Shown here piece after piece: positions 48,915-64,000 of a DNA stretch of 64,000 bases. The notes under the pieces are model-generated. The model ran no database searches, was not told the origin of the DNA, and worked only from the letters and a program-made list of their open reading frames with translations. The number at the start of each line of letters is the position of its first letter. Positions within the stretch are counted from its first letter, which is position 1. The position numbers and the translations under genes are program-made. The DNA comes from an uncultured Alphaproteobacteria bacterium (GTDB lineage Bacteria > Pseudomonadota > Alphaproteobacteria > Caulobacterales > Parvularculaceae), in NCBI GenBank assembly GCA_902826095.1, contig CADEDN010000008.1, positions 62,001 to 126,000 on the forward strand. The letters run 5' to 3'.

Positions 48915-49991
48915 TTATTGAGGCGCGGACGGATAGGCGCGCCCTTGCCGCGCGTCGCGCGGGCTTGTTCCAGTCCATCGCTTGAAGGCGCGACTGAACG
49001 CGGCGGGATCAGAAAAGCCGAGGAGATAGGCCGTCTCGTTGACCGAAATCGCGCGCGCCGCGAGGTAGTCGAGCGCCATCTTCCGGCGGAGCCCATCGAG
49101 CAGCGCGTCGTAGCGGGCGCCTTCGTCCTTCAGCTTTCTGTACAAGGTCGGCGCGCTCATTTTCATCGCCGCGGCGACCGTCGACATGCGCGCGTCGCCC
49201 TTGTGCAGGATCGAAGCGAGGATGCGTTCGACTTCGTCCTTTGTCGACCGGGCGACGTTCAGCGACTTCAGCAGCCTGTCGGCGTGCGCGCTGAAAATGT
49301 TGAACGAATACCGGTTCGCCGTCGGAGGCTTGGCGGTCAGAAGGGCGGCGTCGAAGAGAATTGCATTGCGCGCGGCGTCAAACGTCGTCGGCGATTTTAG
49401 AACGCGCTCGTATTCGGCGGCGTACGCTGGCGCGGCGTGGGTCACCAAGACCGCCTTGAAGCAGGACGGCTCGCCGGGAAATTGCCGAAGGGCGTCGCAA
49501 ATGAAGCGCGCGAACGTCGCTTCGGTGATCTCCGGAAAATCATTCGGACTCGGCCGGCGGTCCTCGAGCCAGACGCCGTCGCCGCCGGGCGCCAGCGCGA
49601 AGCGGTCAGGCCCGTCCGCTTCGACCTCCATCACGAGACGCGCGTAGCGGCGGAATTCCCGAATCGCTTCGCCCATCGTTTGCGAAGCCCTGATGATCAG
49701 GCCGACGATCGTGGTGTCGTAAAGGATCGGGCTCTCTCCGAAATGCAGGGCGAAAGCGGGATCGGCGCATTCCGCCGCCGCGGCTCGCATCAGGGATTTA
49801 AGAACGGCGAGGGCGATGCGGTTGTCTGGGTCGGCGAGCGCTTCAGGCGCGATTCCGGTGCGGCTGAGAAGCGCCTCCGACTCCGCGCCGCGCGACGCCG
49901 CGAACTCGACGAGGGTCTTCGCATAGCTCGCCGAGACGCTGGGTCCACGAGGCGTTTGCGCCTGCGGGCCGCATTGAACCCTGGTCGTCAC
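48915..49991 (-). CDS. AraC family regulator (Arabinose_bd type), paralogue 1
   Basis: A 358-residue regulator with the N-terminal Arabinose_bd domain (VGLIIRASQTMGEAIREFRR) and a C-terminal HTH pair (MSTVAAAMKMSAPTLYRKLK and VNETAYLLGFSDPAAFSRAF with RWTGTSPRDAR). GTG start overlaps the stop of the upstream paralogue (GTGA). The two proteins are clearly similar throughout, so this is a tandem duplication. Relatives include OruR and regulators of hydrocarbon or amino-acid catabolism; the target here is unknown. Confidence 0.9.
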   Translation of the reverse strand: MTTRVQCGPQAQTPRGPSVSASYAKTLVEFAASRGAESEALLSRTGIAPEALADPDNRIALAVLKSLMRAAAAECADPAFALHFGESPILYDTTIVGLIIRASQTMGEAIREFRRYARLVMEVEADGPDRFALAPGGDGVWLEDRRPSPNDFPEITEATFARFICDALRQFPGEPSCFKAVLVTHAAPAYAAEYERVLKSPTTFDAARNAILFDAALLTAKPPTANRYSFNIFSAHADRLLKSLNVARSTKDEVERILASILHKGDARMSTVAAAMKMSAPTLYRKLKDEGARYDALLDGLRRKMALDYLAARAISVNETAYLLGFSDPAAFSRAFKRWTGTSPRDARQGRAYPSAPQ

Positions 49992-51028
49992 GCTTCGATC
50001 CGTTCAAATATGTGTGCGCCGGACCGCGCGTCGCGCGGGCTTGCGCCCGTCCAGCGCTTGAAGGCGCGGCTGAACGCGGCGGGGTCGGAAAACCCGACGA
50101 GATAGGCGGTTTCGTTCACCGAGACCTTTCGGCCGGTCAGATAATGCATCGACATCCGCCGCCGCAAATCGTCGAGAATTTTTTCGAACGTCGCTTCTTC
50201 GGCTTTAAGCTTGCGGAACATGGTCTGGCGGCTCATGCCGAGTTTCGCCGCCATTTTCTCCATGCCGACATCGTCGGTGTGAAGCAGCGGCAACAGCTCC
50301 TTTTCAAGCCGTCCGCGAAGCGTCTTTGAAGATTGAAGCTCGTTCAGCAATTCTTCGGCGTGCTCGATGAGCACGCCGAAGACATAGCGGCTTTCCGGTT
50401 CGACCGGCAATGTCGGCCAGACCGGATTGAAGCGGATCGCGTTGCTCTTCGCGCTGAAGGTGACCGGCACGCGCCAGACGCGTTCGTATTCCGCGGCATA
50501 AGGGGGCGGCGCGTGCGTCACATGCGCTTCAAGCGCGAAGACGGCGTGCGGGAAGTTCCTGCGTGCGCCGCAAATGAAGCGCGACCACGTCGTTTCGGTG
50601 AGTTCGGGGAACGCGTTCGGATCAAGGCGGCGATCTTCGAGCCACAGTCCGCCGTCACGCGGAGCGATTTCAAATCGCGGGCCGTCGCCGACACCGTCGA
50701 CCTCGATCACGAGTTTCGAATAGCGGTTCATCTGTTCGAGCGCCGCCGCCATGGTCGGCGCCGAATGCGCAATGAGCCCGACGACGGAATATTTCCTGAA
50801 ATCGCTCTCTGCGCCGTATTCGAGCGCCAGCGCAGGGTTTTGCGTTTCATCGATCGCAGCGCGCATCAGCGCGACATATCGCGAATAGGGGACCCGGGCG
50901 TCCTGATCCTCAAGGTCGTCAGGCGCAATGCCCGACCGCGCGTGAAGCCGCGCGGCGTCGGCGCCCGCGGAAGCGGCGTAATCGAGCAACGCGCGCGCGA
51001 ACCCCGCGCCGACGGTCGGCTCAGCCAT
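49988..51028 (-). CDS. AraC family regulator (Arabinose_bd type), paralogue 2
   Basis: A 346-residue regulator similar to its downstream neighbour: sensor domain with VVGLIAHSAPTMAAALEQMN and GGLWLEDRRLDPNAFPELTE; HTH units MEKMAAKLGMSRQTMFRKLK and VNETAYLVGFSDPAAFSRAF, ending RWTGASPRDAR. Both copies keep the DNA-contacting helix nearly identical, so they may share operators or compete. It is the first gene of the pair, transcribed from the 313-base gap upstream. Confidence 0.9.
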   Translation of the reverse strand: MAEPTVGAGFARALLDYAASAGADAARLHARSGIAPDDLEDQDARVPYSRYVALMRAAIDETQNPALALEYGAESDFRKYSVVGLIAHSAPTMAAALEQMNRYSKLVIEVDGVGDGPRFEIAPRDGGLWLEDRRLDPNAFPELTETTWSRFICGARRNFPHAVFALEAHVTHAPPPYAAEYERVWRVPVTFSAKSNAIRFNPVWPTLPVEPESRYVFGVLIEHAEELLNELQSSKTLRGRLEKELLPLLHTDDVGMEKMAAKLGMSRQTMFRKLKAEEATFEKILDDLRRRMSMHYLTGRKVSVNETAYLVGFSDPAAFSRAFKRWTGASPRDARSGAHIFERIEA

Positions 51029-57654: not shown

Positions 57655-57672
57655 GTAAACTGTATAGTTTAC
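57655..57672 (-). promoter_or_regulatory. Palindromic operator upstream of the monooxygenase
   Basis: GTAAACT-GTAT-AGTTTAC is a perfect 7-bp inverted repeat. On the minus strand it contains TATACA as a possible -10 with CTTGCG 16 bases upstream as a -35, so a bound dimer would cover the promoter. TetR-family repressors often control such monooxygenases, but no such gene is adjacent. Confidence 0.55.
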
Positions 57673-57761
57673 TGCCTCCGGGCGCAAGGCGTGTCCGACA
57701 CACTATCGTTTGGGTCCGCCCATCGGATAGGGTTCCGCCAAAACAATGAGGGGCGGCCAGC

Positions 57762-58694
57762 ATGCGCAATAGCGACGGAATCCCCATGAAGACTGCGCTG
57801 TTGCGCGCCTTGGTTTGCGTCGCGGCCTTGGCCGCCGCCGCGCCGGCGGCTGGACAGGAGATCGAGCCGGATTCGGCGGAGGACGATTACGTCCAGGGCA
57901 ATTTCCTTTTCCTCGCCCATCATGAGGCGGGGCACATGATCATGGATCAGGTGCTTGACCTTGATCTGCGTTCGGACCGCCGCGCCGCGGAAGAGGCCGC
58001 AGACGAAATCGCGACCTGGTTGATGCTGCCCGACCCCGACGAACCCGACCAGGACGAGGAGATCGTCGCCGCCATCATGGGCTGGCTGCAGAGCGCCAAC
58101 GAAGCAGGCGAGGCGACTGGCGAAAATCCGCATTATCCGAGCGACGACGACCGCGCGGACCGCATCGCCTGTCTCCTGTATGGCGGCAATCCCGACCTTT
58201 ACGCGGAGATCGCTGAAGCGCTGTGGGAAGAAGGATCCGCAGATGTGTGCATCGCGGATCATGAAAGCCTGCTCGAAAGCTTCGAGAGTTGGTTCGGCCA
58301 CGCGCTCATTCCGCCTGCGGAGCCGTCCAAGGCGAGCGTGCGCTATGAATACCAGGAACCCGACAGCGCCGACGCAGACCTTTATTACGCTTTTCAGTAT
58401 GTTTCGGAAAACCAGATGCTCGAGGATTTTGCGCAGGACATCGTCGAGTTCATCCGCCTGCCGCGCGATATTGGCATCGTCGCGCAAAGCTGCGGCGAAG
58501 GCGACGCGCAGTTCAAATACAGCCCGGAAACGCAGGTCATAACGGTCTGCTACGAGGCGGTCGACTGGTTCATCAAGCGCGCCGCGCTTGGACCGGAAGC
58601 CTTCGGCCCGTCCGACGGCGGCGCGGCGGTGTTCGACGATGGCAATATCGGCTCGGGCGGCGGTCGCGTGAAAAAGAAGCCGGTCCGCCGCTAG
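57762..58694 (+). CDS. DUF4344 metallopeptidase-like exported protein
   Basis: A 310-residue protein with a signal peptide (TALLRALVCVAALAAAAPA, cleaved near AAGQ) and the zinc-peptidase motif HEAGH (in FLAHHEAGHMIMDQVLDL). DUF4344 pattern: RRAAEEAADEIATWLM with the third ligand region, and DDDRADRIACLLYGGNPD. The C-terminus ends basic (VKKKPVRR). Probably a periplasmic protease or a relative without known substrate. ATG 57762 has GAGGGG eight bases upstream; ATG 57786 is an alternative giving MKTALLR. It diverges from the monooxygenase. Confidence 0.85.
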   Translation: MRNSDGIPMKTALLRALVCVAALAAAAPAAGQEIEPDSAEDDYVQGNFLFLAHHEAGHMIMDQVLDLDLRSDRRAAEEAADEIATWLMLPDPDEPDQDEEIVAAIMGWLQSANEAGEATGENPHYPSDDDRADRIACLLYGGNPDLYAEIAEALWEEGSADVCIADHESLLESFESWFGHALIPPAEPSKASVRYEYQEPDSADADLYYAFQYVSENQMLEDFAQDIVEFIRLPRDIGIVAQSCGEGDAQFKYSPETQVITVCYEAVDWFIKRAALGPEAFGPSDGGAAVFDDGNIGSGGGRVKKKPVRR

Positions 58695-58798
58695 AGCGGG
58701 TTGCAGCGAAAGTGGATACCGGTTTCGCGTCGCAATCCGCGCTCCAAGAGATCTGCAGCGTGCGAACCGATTCAATCGGTTCGCAATGCGCTGTAGAC
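58695..58798. repeat. Palindromic intergenic repeat element between convergent genes
   Basis: The whole 104-base gap is filled by two palindromic units. The first (about 58694-58743) pairs AGCGGGTTGC with GCAATCCGCGCT and GCGAAA with TTTCGCG around GTGGATACCG. The second is TGCGAACCGATT-C-AATCGGTTCGCA (58761-58785), a perfect 12-bp stem. The AAGTGGATACCGGTTT core is a wording I recall from dispersed intergenic repeats of Rhizobiales and related alphaproteobacteria. It can also serve as a two-way terminator. No second copy was noticed in this window. Confidence 0.65.
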
Positions 58799-61687
58799 TC
58801 AATTTGCAACGTCAAGGCCGGCGGCGCGACGGAGCGCGGCGATGGCGGCGGCGCCATCGGCGCCCGCGCAAACGTCGCGATCCGGCTTTCGCCATTCGGC
58901 GGCGAGCAGCGGATCGGCGCCGATGGCGGCGTCATCAAATCGCCTGCCATGCGCGCCGAGCAGCGTCGAACACGCATGCGTCTCCAGCGTCTTCCAGTCT
59001 TCGGCGAGGCGGGCGACATCCCAAAAGGTGAGATCGCCATCCTCGCTCGCCGTGGCGAGGCGGCGGCCGTCCGGCGAAAACGCCGCGCCGAACACCGCCT
59101 TCTTGTGTCCGTCAAGCGTCGCCAACAAACGGCCGTCCGCGACATTCCAGATCTTCGCCGTCCCGTCCTCGCTCGCCGTCGCGACGCGCGCCCCGTCCGA
59201 CGAAAACGTCGCGCTGTAAACCCAGCCTTGATGACCGGCGAGCGTCGACATCAAACGCCCCGATTTCACTTCCCAGATTCGAGCGGTCGCGTCGTCGCTG
59301 GCGGTGACGATCAGGCGCCCGTCCGGCGAGAACGCCGCGCCGCCGACGCCGGCTTCATGTCCCGAAAGCATGCGGAGCGGATCTCCGGTCGCGGCGTCCC
59401 AGAGCCGCGCGGTCATGTCTTCGCTGGTTGTCGCCGCAACGGATCCGTCCGGCGATAGAGCGGCGCTGCGCACAATGTCGTCGTGGCCTTGAAGCGTGAC
59501 GCGTGCGCGGCCGCTCGCTGCGTCCCAGATTTTCGCGGTCGCATCCTCGCTCGCCGTAATCACGCGGTCGCCCGTCGCCGAATAGGAGGCGCCGAGAACG
59601 GCGCCGCGATGGCCGACGAGCGATTTGACCATGACGGCGTCGGCGGCGCGCCAGATTTTCGTTGAGCCGTCTGCGCCCGCAGTGACGACAAACCGGCTGT
59701 CGGGCGAAAATCCTGCCGCGTGAAAATCGCCGCCGCTCTCATCGATGCGCTCGATGGCGCGCCGGCCTTCGGCAGTCCACAATCGCATTGCGCCGTCCTT
59801 GCCCGCCGTTGCGACGAGACGGCCGTCGGATGAATACTCGACGCTGGAGACGCCGCCGGCATGCGCCGGGACGATTGCGATCCGGCGGCCCGACGCCTGC
59901 CAGAGGCGCGCGGTGCCGTCGCGGCTCGCAGTGAGGATTTGCGCGCCGCCGGGCGCGAACCGGGCGGCGAACACCGCGCCGCCGTGACCGGCGAGCACAG
60001 CTTCCGGCGCGCCGCTCGCCGCATTCCAGATTCGCGCCGCGCCGTCTTCGCTCGCGGTCGCAATGCGCGCGCCGTCGGGCGAAAACACCGCGCTCCACAC
60101 CATGTTGCGATGGCCGCTCAACGTGGCGAGCAGATCGCCGTTCTCCGAATCCCAGACTTTCGCGGTCTGATCGACGCTGGCGGTGACGAGGCGTCGTCCG
60201 TCCAGCGAGAATTCAACGTCCCAGACTTCGAGCGCGTGGCCATCGAGCGCGGCGATCGTCCGTTTCCCAACGATGTCATAGAGAAAAACGCCGCCCTCGG
60301 CGCCCGTTGCGGCGGCGCGGCGCCCGTCCGGGGAGAACGCTGTCTTGTAGAGCGCTTCGCCCGGACCTTCAAAGCGCGTCAATTCTCGTCCGCTATCGGC
60401 GTCCCGCAAGATTGCAGCGCCGTCGTCGCCGACGGTGAGGATGAAATGTCCGTCCGGCGAGAAAGCCGCGCTCCAGATCGAGCCGTCATGACCATCGAGC
60501 GTCGCAAGCAGCCGTCCGTCGGCTACGCGCCAAAGGCGCGCCGCCGCATCATCGCCGAACACGAGGATGCGCGCGCCGTCCGGCGCGAACAGAACGCCGC
60601 GCGTCGGCCCGGCGGCGCCCGCGAGGACATGGAGGAGCGTCGCATCCTCAGTTCGCCATAAGCGCGCCGAGCCGTCATCACTCGCGGTCGCGACGACGCG
60701 GCCGTCGGGCGAAAACGCCGCTGCGTTGACGGGGCCCTCATGTCCTTTCAGCGTCACTAGCAGGCGTTGATCCGCAACACGCCAGATTTTCGCAAGCTTG
60801 TCCGCTCCAGCGGTCAGGACCGATATCCCATCCGGCGAAAATTCAGCGACGACGACGGATCCCTCATGAAGGAATGGCGCCGCCGCCTCGCCCGAAGCGT
60901 GCATCACGCCGGCGAGCGCGGCGTGATAGAGCGGCAGATTGCGCGGCTGCAGCCGGGCGCCCGCCAGCGCATAACGCGCGGCGTCCGCCGGATCGCCCTC
61001 GGCGAGCCTTGTCCACGCCCGTTCGGCGAAAAACCGGCTGAGCGTCTGATGCGCTTTCGCCGCGTTGTCGCTCGCCGCAATTGCAAGACCGGCAAAAGTC
61101 AGCGCGGTCGCGGATGCGGCCGTGAGGAGCGCGCGTTCACGCAGGCGCGTCCGCCGCTGGTCGCGTCGCCAGAGATCGTCAAAATCGACGCCGATGAGAC
61201 CGGCGGCGAGCCTTGTCACCGCGCGTGCGCGCCCGTCCTTGCGTATGTCGAGCCCCAAGGGTTCGACCGGCATCGCATCGGGATCATCAGGATTCGAAGT
61301 GACCCGGAACGCTTGCGGAAAGCACTCCGTCGCCGGATCGCCGGAATTCGGCACGCCGTCAATGATGAAAGCGAAGACCCTGCCGTTGCGGCCGGTGCGG
61401 CGAAAATGCTCAATTTCGGCGTTGACCCATTTCGACTGGGCCGATCGCGGCGAGCAGACGACGATCAGGCTTTCGGACTCGTCAATCGCCGTGCGAACGA
61501 TCGACGCGATATCGGATGCGGCCGCCATCTCTTCGTCGTCGCGAAAAAAACGGCCGAGCCGGCGCGACGGCGCCACGTCGACAAGCGGTGCGCCGCCGGG
61601 CAGACGCCAGGTTTCGAGCCATCCGTGCAGGCGGCGCGCCGACGCTTTGTCTTGCTGGGAATAGCTGATGAAGGCGCGATATTTCAT
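58799..61687 (-). CDS. TIR domain protein with membrane helix and 15 WD40 repeats
   Basis: A 962-residue protein. Residues 1-130 are a TIR domain: MKYRAFISYSQQDKASARRL at the start, VVCSPRSAQSKWVNAEI with E91 four residues after W87 in the place of the catalytic glutamate of TIR NADases. A hydrophobic segment follows at about 186-207 (ALLTAASATALTFAGLAIAA), then a TPR-like linker. From about 275 to 901 there are 15 WD40 repeats of about 42 residues (FSPDG ... TASEDGTAKIWNVADG), enough for two seven-blade propellers. TIR-WD40 proteins may act in stress or phage response; none of this is shown here. Confidence 0.9.
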   Translation of the reverse strand: MKYRAFISYSQQDKASARRLHGWLETWRLPGGAPLVDVAPSRRLGRFFRDDEEMAAASDIASIVRTAIDESESLIVVCSPRSAQSKWVNAEIEHFRRTGRNGRVFAFIIDGVPNSGDPATECFPQAFRVTSNPDDPDAMPVEPLGLDIRKDGRARAVTRLAAGLIGVDFDDLWRRDQRRTRLRERALLTAASATALTFAGLAIAASDNAAKAHQTLSRFFAERAWTRLAEGDPADAARYALAGARLQPRNLPLYHAALAGVMHASGEAAAPFLHEGSVVVAEFSPDGISVLTAGADKLAKIWRVADQRLLVTLKGHEGPVNAAAFSPDGRVVATASDDGSARLWRTEDATLLHVLAGAAGPTRGVLFAPDGARILVFGDDAAARLWRVADGRLLATLDGHDGSIWSAAFSPDGHFILTVGDDGAAILRDADSGRELTRFEGPGEALYKTAFSPDGRRAAATGAEGGVFLYDIVGKRTIAALDGHALEVWDVEFSLDGRRLVTASVDQTAKVWDSENGDLLATLSGHRNMVWSAVFSPDGARIATASEDGAARIWNAASGAPEAVLAGHGGAVFAARFAPGGAQILTASRDGTARLWQASGRRIAIVPAHAGGVSSVEYSSDGRLVATAGKDGAMRLWTAEGRRAIERIDESGGDFHAAGFSPDSRFVVTAGADGSTKIWRAADAVMVKSLVGHRGAVLGASYSATGDRVITASEDATAKIWDAASGRARVTLQGHDDIVRSAALSPDGSVAATTSEDMTARLWDAATGDPLRMLSGHEAGVGGAAFSPDGRLIVTASDDATARIWEVKSGRLMSTLAGHQGWVYSATFSSDGARVATASEDGTAKIWNVADGRLLATLDGHKKAVFGAAFSPDGRRLATASEDGDLTFWDVARLAEDWKTLETHACSTLLGAHGRRFDDAAIGADPLLAAEWRKPDRDVCAGADGAAAIAALRRAAGLDVAN
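58985..60865 (-). repeat. 15 tandem WD40-coding repeats
   Basis: About 126-bp units encoding the 15 WD40 blades of the TIR protein. The DNA of neighbouring units is diverged, but the FSPDG and (A/S)EDGTA(K/R)(I/L)W stretches are well kept. High internal similarity could allow recombination and change in blade number. Confidence 0.8.
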
Positions 61688-62169
61688 CTATGTCGCCCGT
61701 GCGTGCCTTTTGAACCATTCATCGCCGCAATCGTGCGCCGCGCCAAGGGCAGTCCGCGCTTCTTGCGGCGCAGAAGTGTCGCCTGGTCGCCTGGCCCATC
61801 GGGTCGCGGACGCCCCGAGGCGTTGAGGGAGGCTCTCGTCAAACCTGCGATGCGCCGCCTCATTGAGGGAAATGCACGTCGTCGCGATGACCGCAAGACT
61901 ATCTCAAGCGGCGTCAGCGTTGAGACTCAGCGTACGGATTGTGGATCTGGTCGCGACGCCAAAGCGTTCTTGCGATCGGAACGAGGAACGTCAGCGGCAA
62001 TGATGGCCGCATGAATGAATTCGTCTTTCCCCTGCCCGTGTCATCATTGCTGCGAATTAAGAGATCGTGAACCCATTGCCGCTGCCCTGATTGATCGAGG
62101 TCAAAGGCGTCCCCGGAGAAATATGTGATATTCCAACCAAAATCAGGCGATCAGATCAAGGAGGTTTTT
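61688..62169. other. 482-bp gap upstream of TIR-WD40 and EF-hand genes
   Basis: No gene is supported. Open frames reading through here are arginine-rich and continue from the antisense of the WD40 gene without a ribosome site. It holds divergent promoters; the last 30 bases contain the AAGGAGG site of the EF-hand gene. Confidence 0.5.
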
Positions 62170-62769
62170 ATGCGCAACTTGATGTCGTTGATTGCAATAG
62201 GCGCAGCGGCGGCGGCTTTGGCGATCACGCCTTCGCTTGGGCAAGGCGGCGGAAGCGGCGCGGGACAGGGCGCGGGGCAGCAGGACCGCGACCGCGACAC
62301 GACCCGCGATATCGACCGCGATCTGGATAGTGACATGGATCGTGACAGGGATCGCGATAGGAACAAGCTCGCCGATCAAGATCGCGATCGCCTTTATTTC
62401 GGCGCCCAGGATCGGCTGCGGGAGCATGACCGGGATCGCGACGGATTCTTGAGTGAAACCGAGTTTCGCGCCTGGCGCGAAAGCCAGTTCGGCGCGATCG
62501 ACAGCGACGGCAACGGCGGATTCGGCCTGCAGGAGTATCTCGCTCTGAGGTACGGGCCAGGGCCAAAAGCCGGCGTCGCAACAAAGAACCTGGAACGCGC
62601 GACGTTGAGAAAGACCGAACGTTTCCGGCTCATGGACGGCGACGGCGATGGCGTCGTCACGCATACGGAGTTCATGAAATTCGGCGAGCTCAACTATCTC
62701 GAGGCTGACGCCAATGATGACGGCAAGCTGATGTTCAAGGAACTTAATCAGTATCATCGGAACGAATAA
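62170..62769 (+). CDS. EF-hand calcium-binding exported protein with Asp-Arg repeat
   Basis: A 199-residue protein with a signal peptide (MRNLMSLIAIGAAAAALAIT, cleavage near SLGQ). A low-complexity D-R repeat follows (residues 39-74), then four EF-hand-like loops: DRDRDGFLSETEF, DSDGNGGFGLQEY, DGDGDGVVTHTEF and DANDDGKLMFKEL. Such periplasmic calmodulin-like proteins bind calcium and may signal or buffer it. AAGGAGG five bases before ATG 62170 is an ideal ribosome site. The cytochrome b561 gene starts 18 bases after the stop, so they are likely cotranscribed. Confidence 0.88.
   Translation: MRNLMSLIAIGAAAAALAITPSLGQGGGSGAGQGAGQQDRDRDTTRDIDRDLDSDMDRDRDRDRNKLADQDRDRLYFGAQDRLREHDRDRDGFLSETEFRAWRESQFGAIDSDGNGGFGLQEYLALRYGPGPKAGVATKNLERATLRKTERFRLMDGDGDGVVTHTEFMKFGELNYLEADANDDGKLMFKELNQYHRNE
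62284..62391 (+). repeat. GA(C/T)-CG(C/T) repeat coding Asp-Arg
   Basis: A degenerate hexanucleotide repeat (GACCGC / GATCGC) inside the EF-hand gene encodes alternating Asp and Arg with occasional other residues (DRDRDTTRDIDRDLDSDMDR). It is prone to length change and could form a charged linker. Confidence 0.7.
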
Positions 62770-62787
62770 AAAGCGACGGATCTACTG

Positions 62788-63300
62788 ATGACCGCGACGA
62801 GGACGCCTGCGAGCGGCCGCATCGAGAAAAGAGTTCGCGTCTGGGATTTCCCGACGCGGCTCTTTCACTGGGCGCTGGTCGCGCTCGTCCTCGTGTCGTG
62901 GTTCACGGGCGAGGAGGAGAGCGGCGCCGCGCTGCATCGCTATTCGGGCGAGGCGCTTGCCGGGCTTATCGTCTTTCGCGCCGTTTGGGGCGTCATCGGC
63001 GGCGAGCACGCGCGGTTCGCAAACTTTGTCAGAGGGCCGGCCGCGATCGCCGCGCATGTCGCCGACATGAGCGCGCCGTCTCCGAAGCGGTGGCTGGGCC
63101 ACAACCCGCTTGGCGGGCTTGCGGTGATCGTGATGCTCGCGTTTGTTGCGGGGATCGTCGTCACCGGCTTATTCAACGACGGCGAGCATAATGCCGGACC
63201 GTTCGCCGGCGCGATCGGCGATGTCGGCGAGATTCACGAACTCCTTTTCCGTATCTTGCAGGCCGTCGTCGTCGTCCATCTTGCGGGCGTCGCGTTCTAG
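62788..63300 (+). CDS. Cytochrome b561-type protein, ended early by an in-frame TAG
   Basis: A 170-residue diheme membrane cytochrome b. The four helices and likely heme histidines are present: FPTRLFHWALVALVLVSW, LHRYSGEALAGLIVFRAVWG, IHELLFRILQAVVVVHLAGV. Translation stops at TAG 63298-63300, but the same frame continues for 72 codons with matching b561-like text (LKTKDALVPAMITGMKARRA). GAG to TAG would be a single change. All heme ligands precede the stop, so the short protein may still be assembled. b561 proteins carry electrons between quinol and periplasmic acceptors. It follows the EF-hand gene by 18 bases. Confidence 0.8.
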   Translation: MTATRTPASGRIEKRVRVWDFPTRLFHWALVALVLVSWFTGEEESGAALHRYSGEALAGLIVFRAVWGVIGGEHARFANFVRGPAAIAAHVADMSAPSPKRWLGHNPLGGLAVIVMLAFVAGIVVTGLFNDGEHNAGPFAGAIGDVGEIHELLFRILQAVVVVHLAGVAF

Positions 63301-63519
63301 ACGCTGAAGACGAAGGACGCGCTCGTTCCCGCCATGATTACAGGCATGAAGGCGCGGCGCGCGGACGAGGCTGCGTCGGATGCGCGGCGCGCAGGCCCCG
63401 TTGCACTCGTCGCCGCCGTCACGCTCGGCGCCGCGACGGCCGTTTGGCTTGCAAGTCTCCCGGTTCCAGAGCCGGCAGGCGAGGAAGAGCGTGACGAGGA
63501 GCGCGACGGTGAGGATTGA
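63301..63519 (+). pseudogene. In-frame 3' remainder of the cytochrome b561 gene
   Basis: The frame continues from the TAG without a shift: TLKTKDALVPAMITGMKARR, then a further helix PVALVAAVTLGAATAVWLAS and an acidic end. LVxAMITGxK is usual just after the last helix of b561 proteins. An internal ATG at 63334 has no ribosome site. Nonsense mutation, sequencing error or suppression could explain it. Confidence 0.65.
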
Positions 63520-63576
63520 AGGGAGCGGCCTTCGGCGCAACTGGCGGCGGGGCGCGAATTCGCCTAAAGCCGCGCC

Positions 63577-64000
63577 ATGGACCCCTTCTGGGAGGCGAAA
63601 TCCCTGAAAGACATGACCGACGCGGAGTGGGAATCGCTCTGCGACGGCTGCGGCAAGTGCTGCCTTGTCTTGCTCGATGAAACCGATTCGGGGCGCCTCT
63701 ACGAAACGAACGTCGCGTGCAAGCTCTTCGACGTCAGGAAAAGGCGGTGCACGAATTATACGAAGCGGTCGCAGATCGTCAAAGACTGCGTCACTTTGAA
63801 GCCCGGCAATATCGGCTCGCTCGACTGGATGCCGGAGAGCTGCGCCTATCGTCGCCTCGCGCGCGGGGAGGGGCTTCCCGACTGGCACCCGCTCGTCACC
63901 GGCACGAAGAAGAGCGTCGAGGAAGCCGGCGTCGCGGTGATGAACGCGGTCAGCGAACAGAGCGTCGATGGCGACGAGATTTGGGATCATGTGACGGCCG
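63577..64000 (+). CDS. YcgN family cysteine cluster protein (partial, runs off the right edge)
   Basis: The first 141 residues of a YcgN/UPF0260-type protein. The cysteine cluster is clear: LCDGCGKCCLVLLDE with later CKLFDVRKRRCTNYTKRSQ and VKDCVTLKP, SCAYRRLARGEGLPDWHPLV. Such proteins are thought to bind zinc or iron through the conserved cysteines; the function is not established. The product begins MDPFWEAKSLKDMTDAEWES as in relatives. A 57-base gap separates it from the b561 remainder. Confidence 0.9.
   Translation, partial: MDPFWEAKSLKDMTDAEWESLCDGCGKCCLVLLDETDSGRLYETNVACKLFDVRKRRCTNYTKRSQIVKDCVTLKPGNIGSLDWMPESCAYRRLARGEGLPDWHPLVTGTKKSVEEAGVAVMNAVSEQSVDGDEIWDHVTA

What the first reader, a model, noticed from the sequence alone, without database searches (positions are those of the whole stretch)
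58799..61687. Membrane-linked TIR-WD40 protein with two predicted propellers
TIR domain with the catalytic-position glutamate (E91), a membrane helix, and 15 WD40 repeats. TIR proteins in bacteria are often NAD-consuming effectors of defence or cell death. WD40 propellers would be the sensor. No partner gene is adjacent, so it would be a one-gene sensor-effector.
Basis: inference. Interest (0 to 1): 0.55.

Follow-up and report, generated by a model that had tools for sequence, protein, structure and literature searches.

The report
Membrane TIR receptor with periplasmic protease partner
A bacterial protein that looks like an inside-out Toll-like receptor (a probable NAD-cutting TIR domain inside the cell, a large double propeller outside) is found next to a secreted metalloprotease wherever it is intact, which suggests a small envelope-sensing signalling or defence cassette.

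Summary
The interpretation needs two corrections. (1) It is not a one-gene system. A gene for a secreted DUF4344 metallopeptidase (HExxH...ExxAD, signal peptide, four invariant Cys) lies tail-to-tail with it in 20 of 20 intact loci that could be read; no other neighbour is shared so widely. Ten loci add a small secreted acidic protein after the protease; eight others instead carry a C-terminal tail on the protease. (2) The WD40 part is probably periplasmic, not a cytosolic sensor: positive-inside charges, 2 Cys in 9,988 WD40 residues, and an invariant Cys pair in the C-terminal tail. The pair is accessory: 1 of 62 family genomes, 19 of 398 order genomes, within a 5.9-kb block missing from two same-genus genomes. 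Best reading: a membrane receptor whose cytosolic TIR NADase/cyclase is controlled from the periplasm, the protease processing the receptor or its ligand. Enzyme activity, phage defence and the protease's role are untested. No defence-gene neighbourhood was found.

The parts
58799..61687 (-). TIR-TM-WD40 gene, 962 aa
61193..61687 (-). TIR domain plus family-specific extension (residues 1-165); Glu91 codon at 61415-61417
   Evidence: Pfam TIR_2 residues 6-112; E91 16 of 16 and 20 of 20; C78 and C122 16 of 16
61073..61129 (-). Transmembrane helix, residues 187-205, preceded by 7 Lys/Arg in 15 residues
   Evidence: hydropathy; flanking charges; model helix 169-204 with low pLDDT
60893..61063 (-). 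Three-helix linker, residues 209-265, predicted periplasmic
   Evidence: model; FFAERAW...RYA.AG conserved
59891..60892 (-). First propeller, 8 blades, residues 266-599
   Evidence: 5mzh Z 51.4, 1.3 A, 334 aligned; Tako8 6y7n Z 46.3, 1.3 A, 318 aligned
59012..59887 (-). Second propeller, 7 blades, residues 601-892
   Evidence: 7big Z 49.0, 1.0 A, 286 aligned; 5yzv WD40 of Thermomonospora curvata Z 47.6, 1.2 A, 288 aligned
58802..59011 (-). C-terminal tail, residues 893-962, with Cys906 and Cys940
   Evidence: both Cys in 15 of 15 tails available
57762..58694 (+). DUF4344 putative metallopeptidase, convergent partner
   Evidence: PF14247 81.2 bits, cut-off 29.6; convergent in 20 of 20 intact readable loci
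57786..57854 (+). Predicted Sec signal peptide of the partner, from the second Met
   Evidence: hydrophobic core and small-residue site; 15 of 15 have a hydrophobic N-terminus. No signal-peptide program was run
57921..58004 (+). HEAGH ... E69xxAD73, gluzincin-like metal site
   Evidence: HExxH and ExxAD in 18 of 18; invariant in A2
58593..58691 (+). C-terminal Gly-rich, basic tail of the partner (GSGGGRVKKKPVRR)
   Evidence: tail of 29-48 residues in 8 of 8 short-gap loci, 2-6 residues in 10 of 10 long-gap loci
57697..63578 (.). 5.9-kb block present here and missing from two same-genus genomes
   Evidence: G003 and G004 have about 80 bp between the same flanking genes

Best explanation
A two-gene (in some relatives three-gene) envelope-sensing cassette. 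Shown by sequence: a TIR-TM-WD40 protein and a convergent gene for a DUF4344 metallopeptidase travel together. Inferred: the N-terminal TIR lies in the cytoplasm, one helix crosses the inner membrane, and the helical linker, 8+7-blade propellers and disulfide tail lie in the periplasm, where the exported DUF4344 protease also works. A periplasmic event (ligand or envelope damage, probably made or exposed by the protease, possibly from the small acidic protein or the protease's own tail) is read by the propellers and changes the clustering of the receptor. That brings cytosolic TIR domains together so that Glu91-dependent cleavage or cyclisation of NAD starts. The output would be NAD loss or an ADP-ribose-type signal, for defence or stress.
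For: Partner: convergent DUF4344 in 18 of 18 loci, while the other shared neighbours join only a few loci, mostly close relatives, plus L154 and L157. In 150 order genomes all 5 with TIR-WD40 have DUF4344 against 4 of 145 without, Fisher p 2e-7, not corrected for kinship. The one frameshifted copy (G211) is in a genome with no DUF4344. Distances of WD40 and DUF4344 correlate (r 0.96, 15 loci), more than TIR with DUF4344 (0.88). Topology: 5-7 Lys/Arg in the 18 residues before the helix; WD40 regions hold 2 Cys in 9,988 residues; tail Cys pair 15 of 15. Control: WD40 domains after a hydrophobic segment have 0.34% Cys (41 proteins), without one 1.34% (11), ambiguous 1.76% (7). Partner: hydrophobic signal-like N-terminus 15 of 15, exactly 4 mature Cys 15 of 15, HExxH and ExxAD 18 of 18. 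Catalytic Glu.
Against: No activity, export or interaction was measured. No PDB fold matched the DUF4344 model (no Foldseek E <= 0.001; best Z 3.1, rmsd 3.4, 86 aligned). The TIR and membrane parts of the model have low confidence. Cys-poor repeats could be a lineage habit. Convergent genes are not co-transcribed, so linkage may mean co-transfer alone. Several loci are close relatives. No defence-gene clustering.
Confidence: 0.45

Rival explanations
1. Receptor restrained by its protease: DUF4344 trims or degrades the propeller ectodomain to keep the TIR off; an invader or envelope stress that blocks the protease lets the receptor signal. Same anatomy, opposite sign.
For: Same linkage data. 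The frameshifted TIR-WD40 occurs where DUF4344 is absent, as expected if an unrestrained receptor is harmful; but that is one genome.
Against: One degraded case; nothing shows cleavage of the receptor.
Confidence: 0.25
2. One-gene cytosolic sensor-effector for phage defence, with DUF4344 an incidental passenger.
For: TIR and WD40 domains are real; patchy distribution.
Against: DUF4344 linkage in 20 of 20 intact readable loci; topology signals; no defence neighbours among 94 of 108 neighbour ORFs; no phage hit for residues 1-266.
Confidence: 0.1
3. Non-immune envelope housekeeping or signalling: TIR acts as an assembly domain without NAD cleavage, the propellers bind envelope parts.
For: Neighbours are metabolic, transport and regulatory genes; not in a defence island; no sign of recent repeat amplification or hypervariable propellers.
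Against: Invariant Glu in the WVxxE position in 16 of 16 orthologues and 20 of 20 wider modules; accessory distribution.
Confidence: 0.2

Closest known systems
Bacterial TIR NADases and Thoeris ThsB (PF13676, PF08937)
   Same: TIR domain over both curated cut-offs, Glu in the WxxxE position
   Different: Membrane-anchored with a large WD40 C-terminus; no ThsA-like neighbour seen
Animal Toll-like receptors (from general knowledge)
   Same: Repeat ectodomain, one membrane helix, cytosolic TIR, if the topology inferred here is right; a protease beside a TIR receptor recalls Toll and Spaetzle
   Different: Order reversed (TIR first), WD40 instead of leucine-rich repeats; no homology outside the TIR claimed
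PknD-type receptor kinases (PMC3322341, passages read)
   Same: Cytosolic enzyme, membrane helix, outer beta-propeller sensor
   Different: TIR instead of kinase; 8+7 WD40 blades instead of one six-bladed propeller
Third component of the beta-propeller MoxR-vWA systems (PMC7159879, passages read)
   Same: Variable N-terminal domain, membrane segment, TPR and beta-propeller regions
   Different: No MoxR or vWA hit among the 7 window neighbours scanned; not resolved for the other loci, as only 25 of 100 families were shown
DUF4344, putative metallopeptidase (PF14247)
   Same: Pfam match over cut-off
   Different: Known family, no function found; only two papers of the library name it, and the one passage read does not link it with TIR-WD40

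Membership tests
Bacterial TIR NADase | TIR domain over curated cut-off | tested here: met
   42.6 bits against 28
Bacterial TIR NADase | Catalytic-position Glu conserved | tested here: met
   16 of 16 and 20 of 20
Bacterial TIR NADase | Cleaves NAD | not testable with these tools
   needs an assay
Thoeris | ThsB-type TIR | tested here: met
   PF08937 38.2 bits against 21.2; PADLOC ThsB only 19.3 bits, E 1.9e-4
Thoeris | ThsA effector gene adjacent | tested here: not met
   No ThsA among 94 of 108 neighbour ORFs of 17 loci (PADLOC) nor among 7 window neighbours (Pfam)
NLR-like STAND proteins with WD40 | NTPase domain between effector and repeats | tested here: not met
   No NTPase family in residues 1-266; three helices only
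Toll-like receptor architecture | Extracytoplasmic repeats, one TM, cytosolic TIR | tested here: inconclusive
   Charges and Cys pattern agree; no experiment
Toll-like receptor architecture | Leucine-rich repeat ectodomain | tested here: not met
   WD40 propellers
DUF4344 metallopeptidase (partner) | Profile over cut-off and HExxH | tested here: met
   81.2 bits against 29.6; HExxH 18 of 18
DUF4344 metallopeptidase (partner) | Known peptidase fold | tested here: inconclusive
   No clear PDB match

The most novel reading that the evidence does not exclude
A bacterial counterpart, by convergence, of Toll with a proteolytically made ligand: the DUF4344 protease processes a small secreted acidic protein (ten loci) or its own C-terminal tail (eight loci) and the released peptide binds the periplasmic double propeller, which switches on a cytosolic TIR NADase. 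The protease tail and the small gene exclude each other in 18 of 18 loci, as expected if they do one job in cis or in trans.
Probability: 0.15. Interest if true: 0.9.

Novelty: new variant of a known kind. Interest (0 to 1): 0.62.

Why it matters
The bacterial TIR systems I know of sense inside the cell (from general knowledge). A TIR receptor that senses the periplasm and is tied to a secreted protease would extend TIR signalling to the envelope, give DUF4344 a first functional setting, and offer a simple system for asking how a membrane-spanning TIR receptor is switched on.

Tried and rejected
Defence island: 94 of 108 neighbour ORFs of 17 loci scanned with PADLOC; 5 families matched at 1e-10 (mad2 in 2 members, ZorB3 in 2, ZorB1 in 1, 2OG in 1, BrxH in 1), read as cross-matches to MotB/OmpA-like and other general proteins; not followed. 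Hypervariable NLR-like propellers: repeats of this protein average 39% identity, maximum 62%, no recent amplification; the best-matching repeat is the positional one in 53 of 210 tests, so no case for rapid repeat turnover, and only weak repeat individuality. Phage or plasmid carriage: no phage record; 9 plasmid records match the TIR only at 25-39% and none covers 80% of the query. Lit-type protease: NCBIfam Lit match of 19.6 bits against a cut-off of 274, rejected. HEAT-ARM_XIII PADLOC hit, read as a repeat artefact. DUF4344 in one X-Tfe effector figure legend: no link made. DUF4344 next to other TIR proteins: not found at L002-L006, L009, L065, L084, L099-L102 (12 loci; L002-L006 and L009 have only about 1.5 kb of flank). 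DUF4344 outside the cassette (L142-L146): no TIR-WD40 beside it. Loci left out of the counts: L029 (gene cut by contig end; its genome G316 has DUF4344 on another contig), and L120-L122, L125, L147-L153 and L155, judged the same contigs as earlier loci from equal contig lengths. Genes and later scripts were called by a rough script of mine, and some starts are uncertain (L022, L033, L119). The mirror-tree correlation was not corrected for kinship. PepO is the only metallopeptidase in the VIA list of the DUF4344 model (Z 2.6, rmsd 4.8-4.9, 128-129 aligned), too weak to use.

Full report
What is there. The ORF at 58799-61687(-) encodes 962 aa. Residues 6-112 match TIR_2 at 42.6 bits (cut-off 28) and ThsB_TIR at 38.2 (cut-off 21.2); the closest solved sequences are plant TIR domains (flax L6, E 1e-4). 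Residue 91 is Glu in SKWVNAE. The best hydrophobic segment is 187-205. WD40 scores 419.9 bits; 15 units repeat every 42 residues or so. An AlphaFold2 model from 16 sequences (mean pLDDT 84.1; TIR and membrane parts weak) has 59 propeller strands by my count of its strand list. VIA-align splits them cleanly: 266-599 matches 8-bladed propellers and 601-892 7-bladed ones. So 'two predicted propellers' is right, as 8 + 7.

Relatives. A scan of genome contigs returned 78 loci; 15 (L021-L035) encode the protein along its length at 44-51% identity in the best segment (L029 cut short by its contig end), mostly labelled Hyphomonadaceae or Hyphomonas. Glu91 is present in 16 of 16, Cys78 and Cys122 in 16 of 16. 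The same TIR-TM module occurs with other C-termini: four more copies in this genome, two of them clearly TIR-TPR, a third with weak TPR matches and one with no repeat match. Across 20 modules Glu91 is 20 of 20.

Topology. Across the 16 sequences 5-7 Lys/Arg lie in the 18 residues before the helix, which by the positive-inside rule (general knowledge) puts the TIR inside. The WD40 region has 2 Cys in 9,988 residues while the C-terminal tail has an invariant pair in 15 of 15. As a control, other bacterial WD40 domains after a hydrophobic segment have 0.34% Cys (41 proteins), those without one 1.34% (11), ambiguous 1.76% (7); neighbour proteins of the ortholog loci have 0.98%. This fits a periplasmic, disulfide-bonded ectodomain. 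It is inference, not proof.

The partner. I compared gene content around 18 loci: the window plus L021-L028, L030-L035, L119, L123 and L124. Besides the receptor, one gene cluster is in 18 of 18: a convergent gene for DUF4344; the next commonest cluster reaches 6 loci, and the others are shared by at most 4. Two further loci, L154 and L157, also have it: 20 of 20 intact loci with readable downstream sequence. The exception, G211 (L156), has a receptor split between two frames and no DUF4344 in its genome. In the same draw of 150 order genomes (judged the same from the handles listed) DUF4344 is in 9 and the receptor in 5, all 5 among the 9: Fisher p 2e-7, without correction for kinship. The window partner scores 81.2 bits against a cut-off of 29.6. 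All 15 aligned partners have a hydrophobic N-terminus of signal-peptide type and exactly four Cys in the mature part; HExxH and ExxAD are in 18 of 18. HExxH with a downstream ExxxD is the gluzincin pattern (general knowledge). Its model (mean pLDDT 76.9) has no clear solved match. Pairwise distances over 15 loci correlate best between WD40 part and DUF4344 (0.96), then TIR and WD40 (0.92), then TIR and DUF4344 (0.88).

A third element. Ten of the 18 loci have 472-609 bp between the two stops. All ten hold a small ORF on the DUF4344 strand, downstream of it: 107-148 aa, signal-like N-terminus, net acidic by 11-29, conserved C-terminus of the form GS...GG..RP..PD (one relative reads NP for RP and one GA for GS). 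Close pairs differ most often at third codon positions (24 of 33, 50 of 89, 56 of 98, 79 of 147 differences), so it is very probably coding. L157 has a shorter candidate without that C-terminus. In the other eight loci, the window included, there is no room for such a gene and DUF4344 instead carries a 29-48 residue tail, six of eight with GSGGxRV; in the ten it ends 2-6 residues after the same point. Tail and small gene exclude each other in 18 of 18. That they do one job is my inference.

Distribution and mobility. A full-length match (E <= 1e-70) is in 1 of 62 genomes of the family, this one. In the order 19 of 398 match at E <= 1e-90, in 7 of 59 genera, including the frameshifted G211. In a class sample of 385 one other genome matches, over WD40 only. 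Of eight same-genus genomes, G003 and G004 carry the flanking FMO and CxxCxxCC genes with about 80 bp between them where the window has 5.9 kb; G001 has 2.7 kb of other DNA there; five could not be judged on one contig. So the pair is accessory and probably gained here. No phage record and only weak TIR matches on plasmids were found. Neighbours of 17 loci (94 of 108 ORFs) are ordinary metabolic, transport and regulatory genes as far as the 25 families shown tell.

Mechanism. Shown by sequence: domain order, conserved Glu, conserved partner, conserved Cys. Inferred: membrane orientation, export of the partner, metal catalysis, coupling. I think it most likely that the propellers sense a periplasmic event that the protease creates or shapes, and that this clusters the cytosolic TIR domains and starts NAD cleavage or cyclisation. 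The main rival has the protease restraining the receptor.

Literature. Searches for TIR with WD40, periplasm, metallopeptidase and DUF4344 showed me no report of this pair; the library lacks most subscription journals. I read passages only of PMC6536674, PMC8195603, PMC10907252, PMC13174449, PMC7159879 and PMC3322341; the other papers I saw as search listings. PMC7159879 describes a different system whose third component also has a membrane segment, TPR and beta-propeller regions; PMC3322341 describes PknD with an outer propeller and an inner kinase.

Noticed in passing
window 58685-58797: About 110-bp dispersed element between the two convergent stop codons, with copies of 83-89% identity on several contigs of this genome; it looks like a REP-type element and may act as a two-way terminator.
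   Followed up: partly
window 62125-62769 and 62788-63300: EF-hand protein with a weak lanmodulin match (28.3 bits, cut-off 135) followed by a cytochrome b561 gene, inside the accessory 5.9-kb block.
   Followed up: no
window about 57655-57672: Palindrome GTAAACTGTATAGTTTAC upstream of the FMO gene; G003 has GTAAACTCTAAGGTTTAC there. Probably an operator.
   Followed up: no
L142 7214-8812: Second DUF4344/HExxH protein of this genome (533 aa), not beside a TIR gene.
   Followed up: partly
L099, L100, L101, L102: Four more TIR-TM proteins of this genome, two clearly TIR-TPR. Cys counts after the helix over the 20 modules are mostly even, which suggests periplasmic C-termini across the family.
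   Followed up: partly
L156 7876-11171: TIR-WD40 copy split between two frames in a genome without DUF4344.
   Followed up: partly
L023 10941-11303 and nine other loci: Small secreted acidic protein gene after DUF4344.
   Followed up: yes
window 48948-49160 and 50024-50236: 213-nt direct repeat, 72% identical, whose first 100 bases appear among the matches found when the window was searched against its own genome.
   Followed up: no
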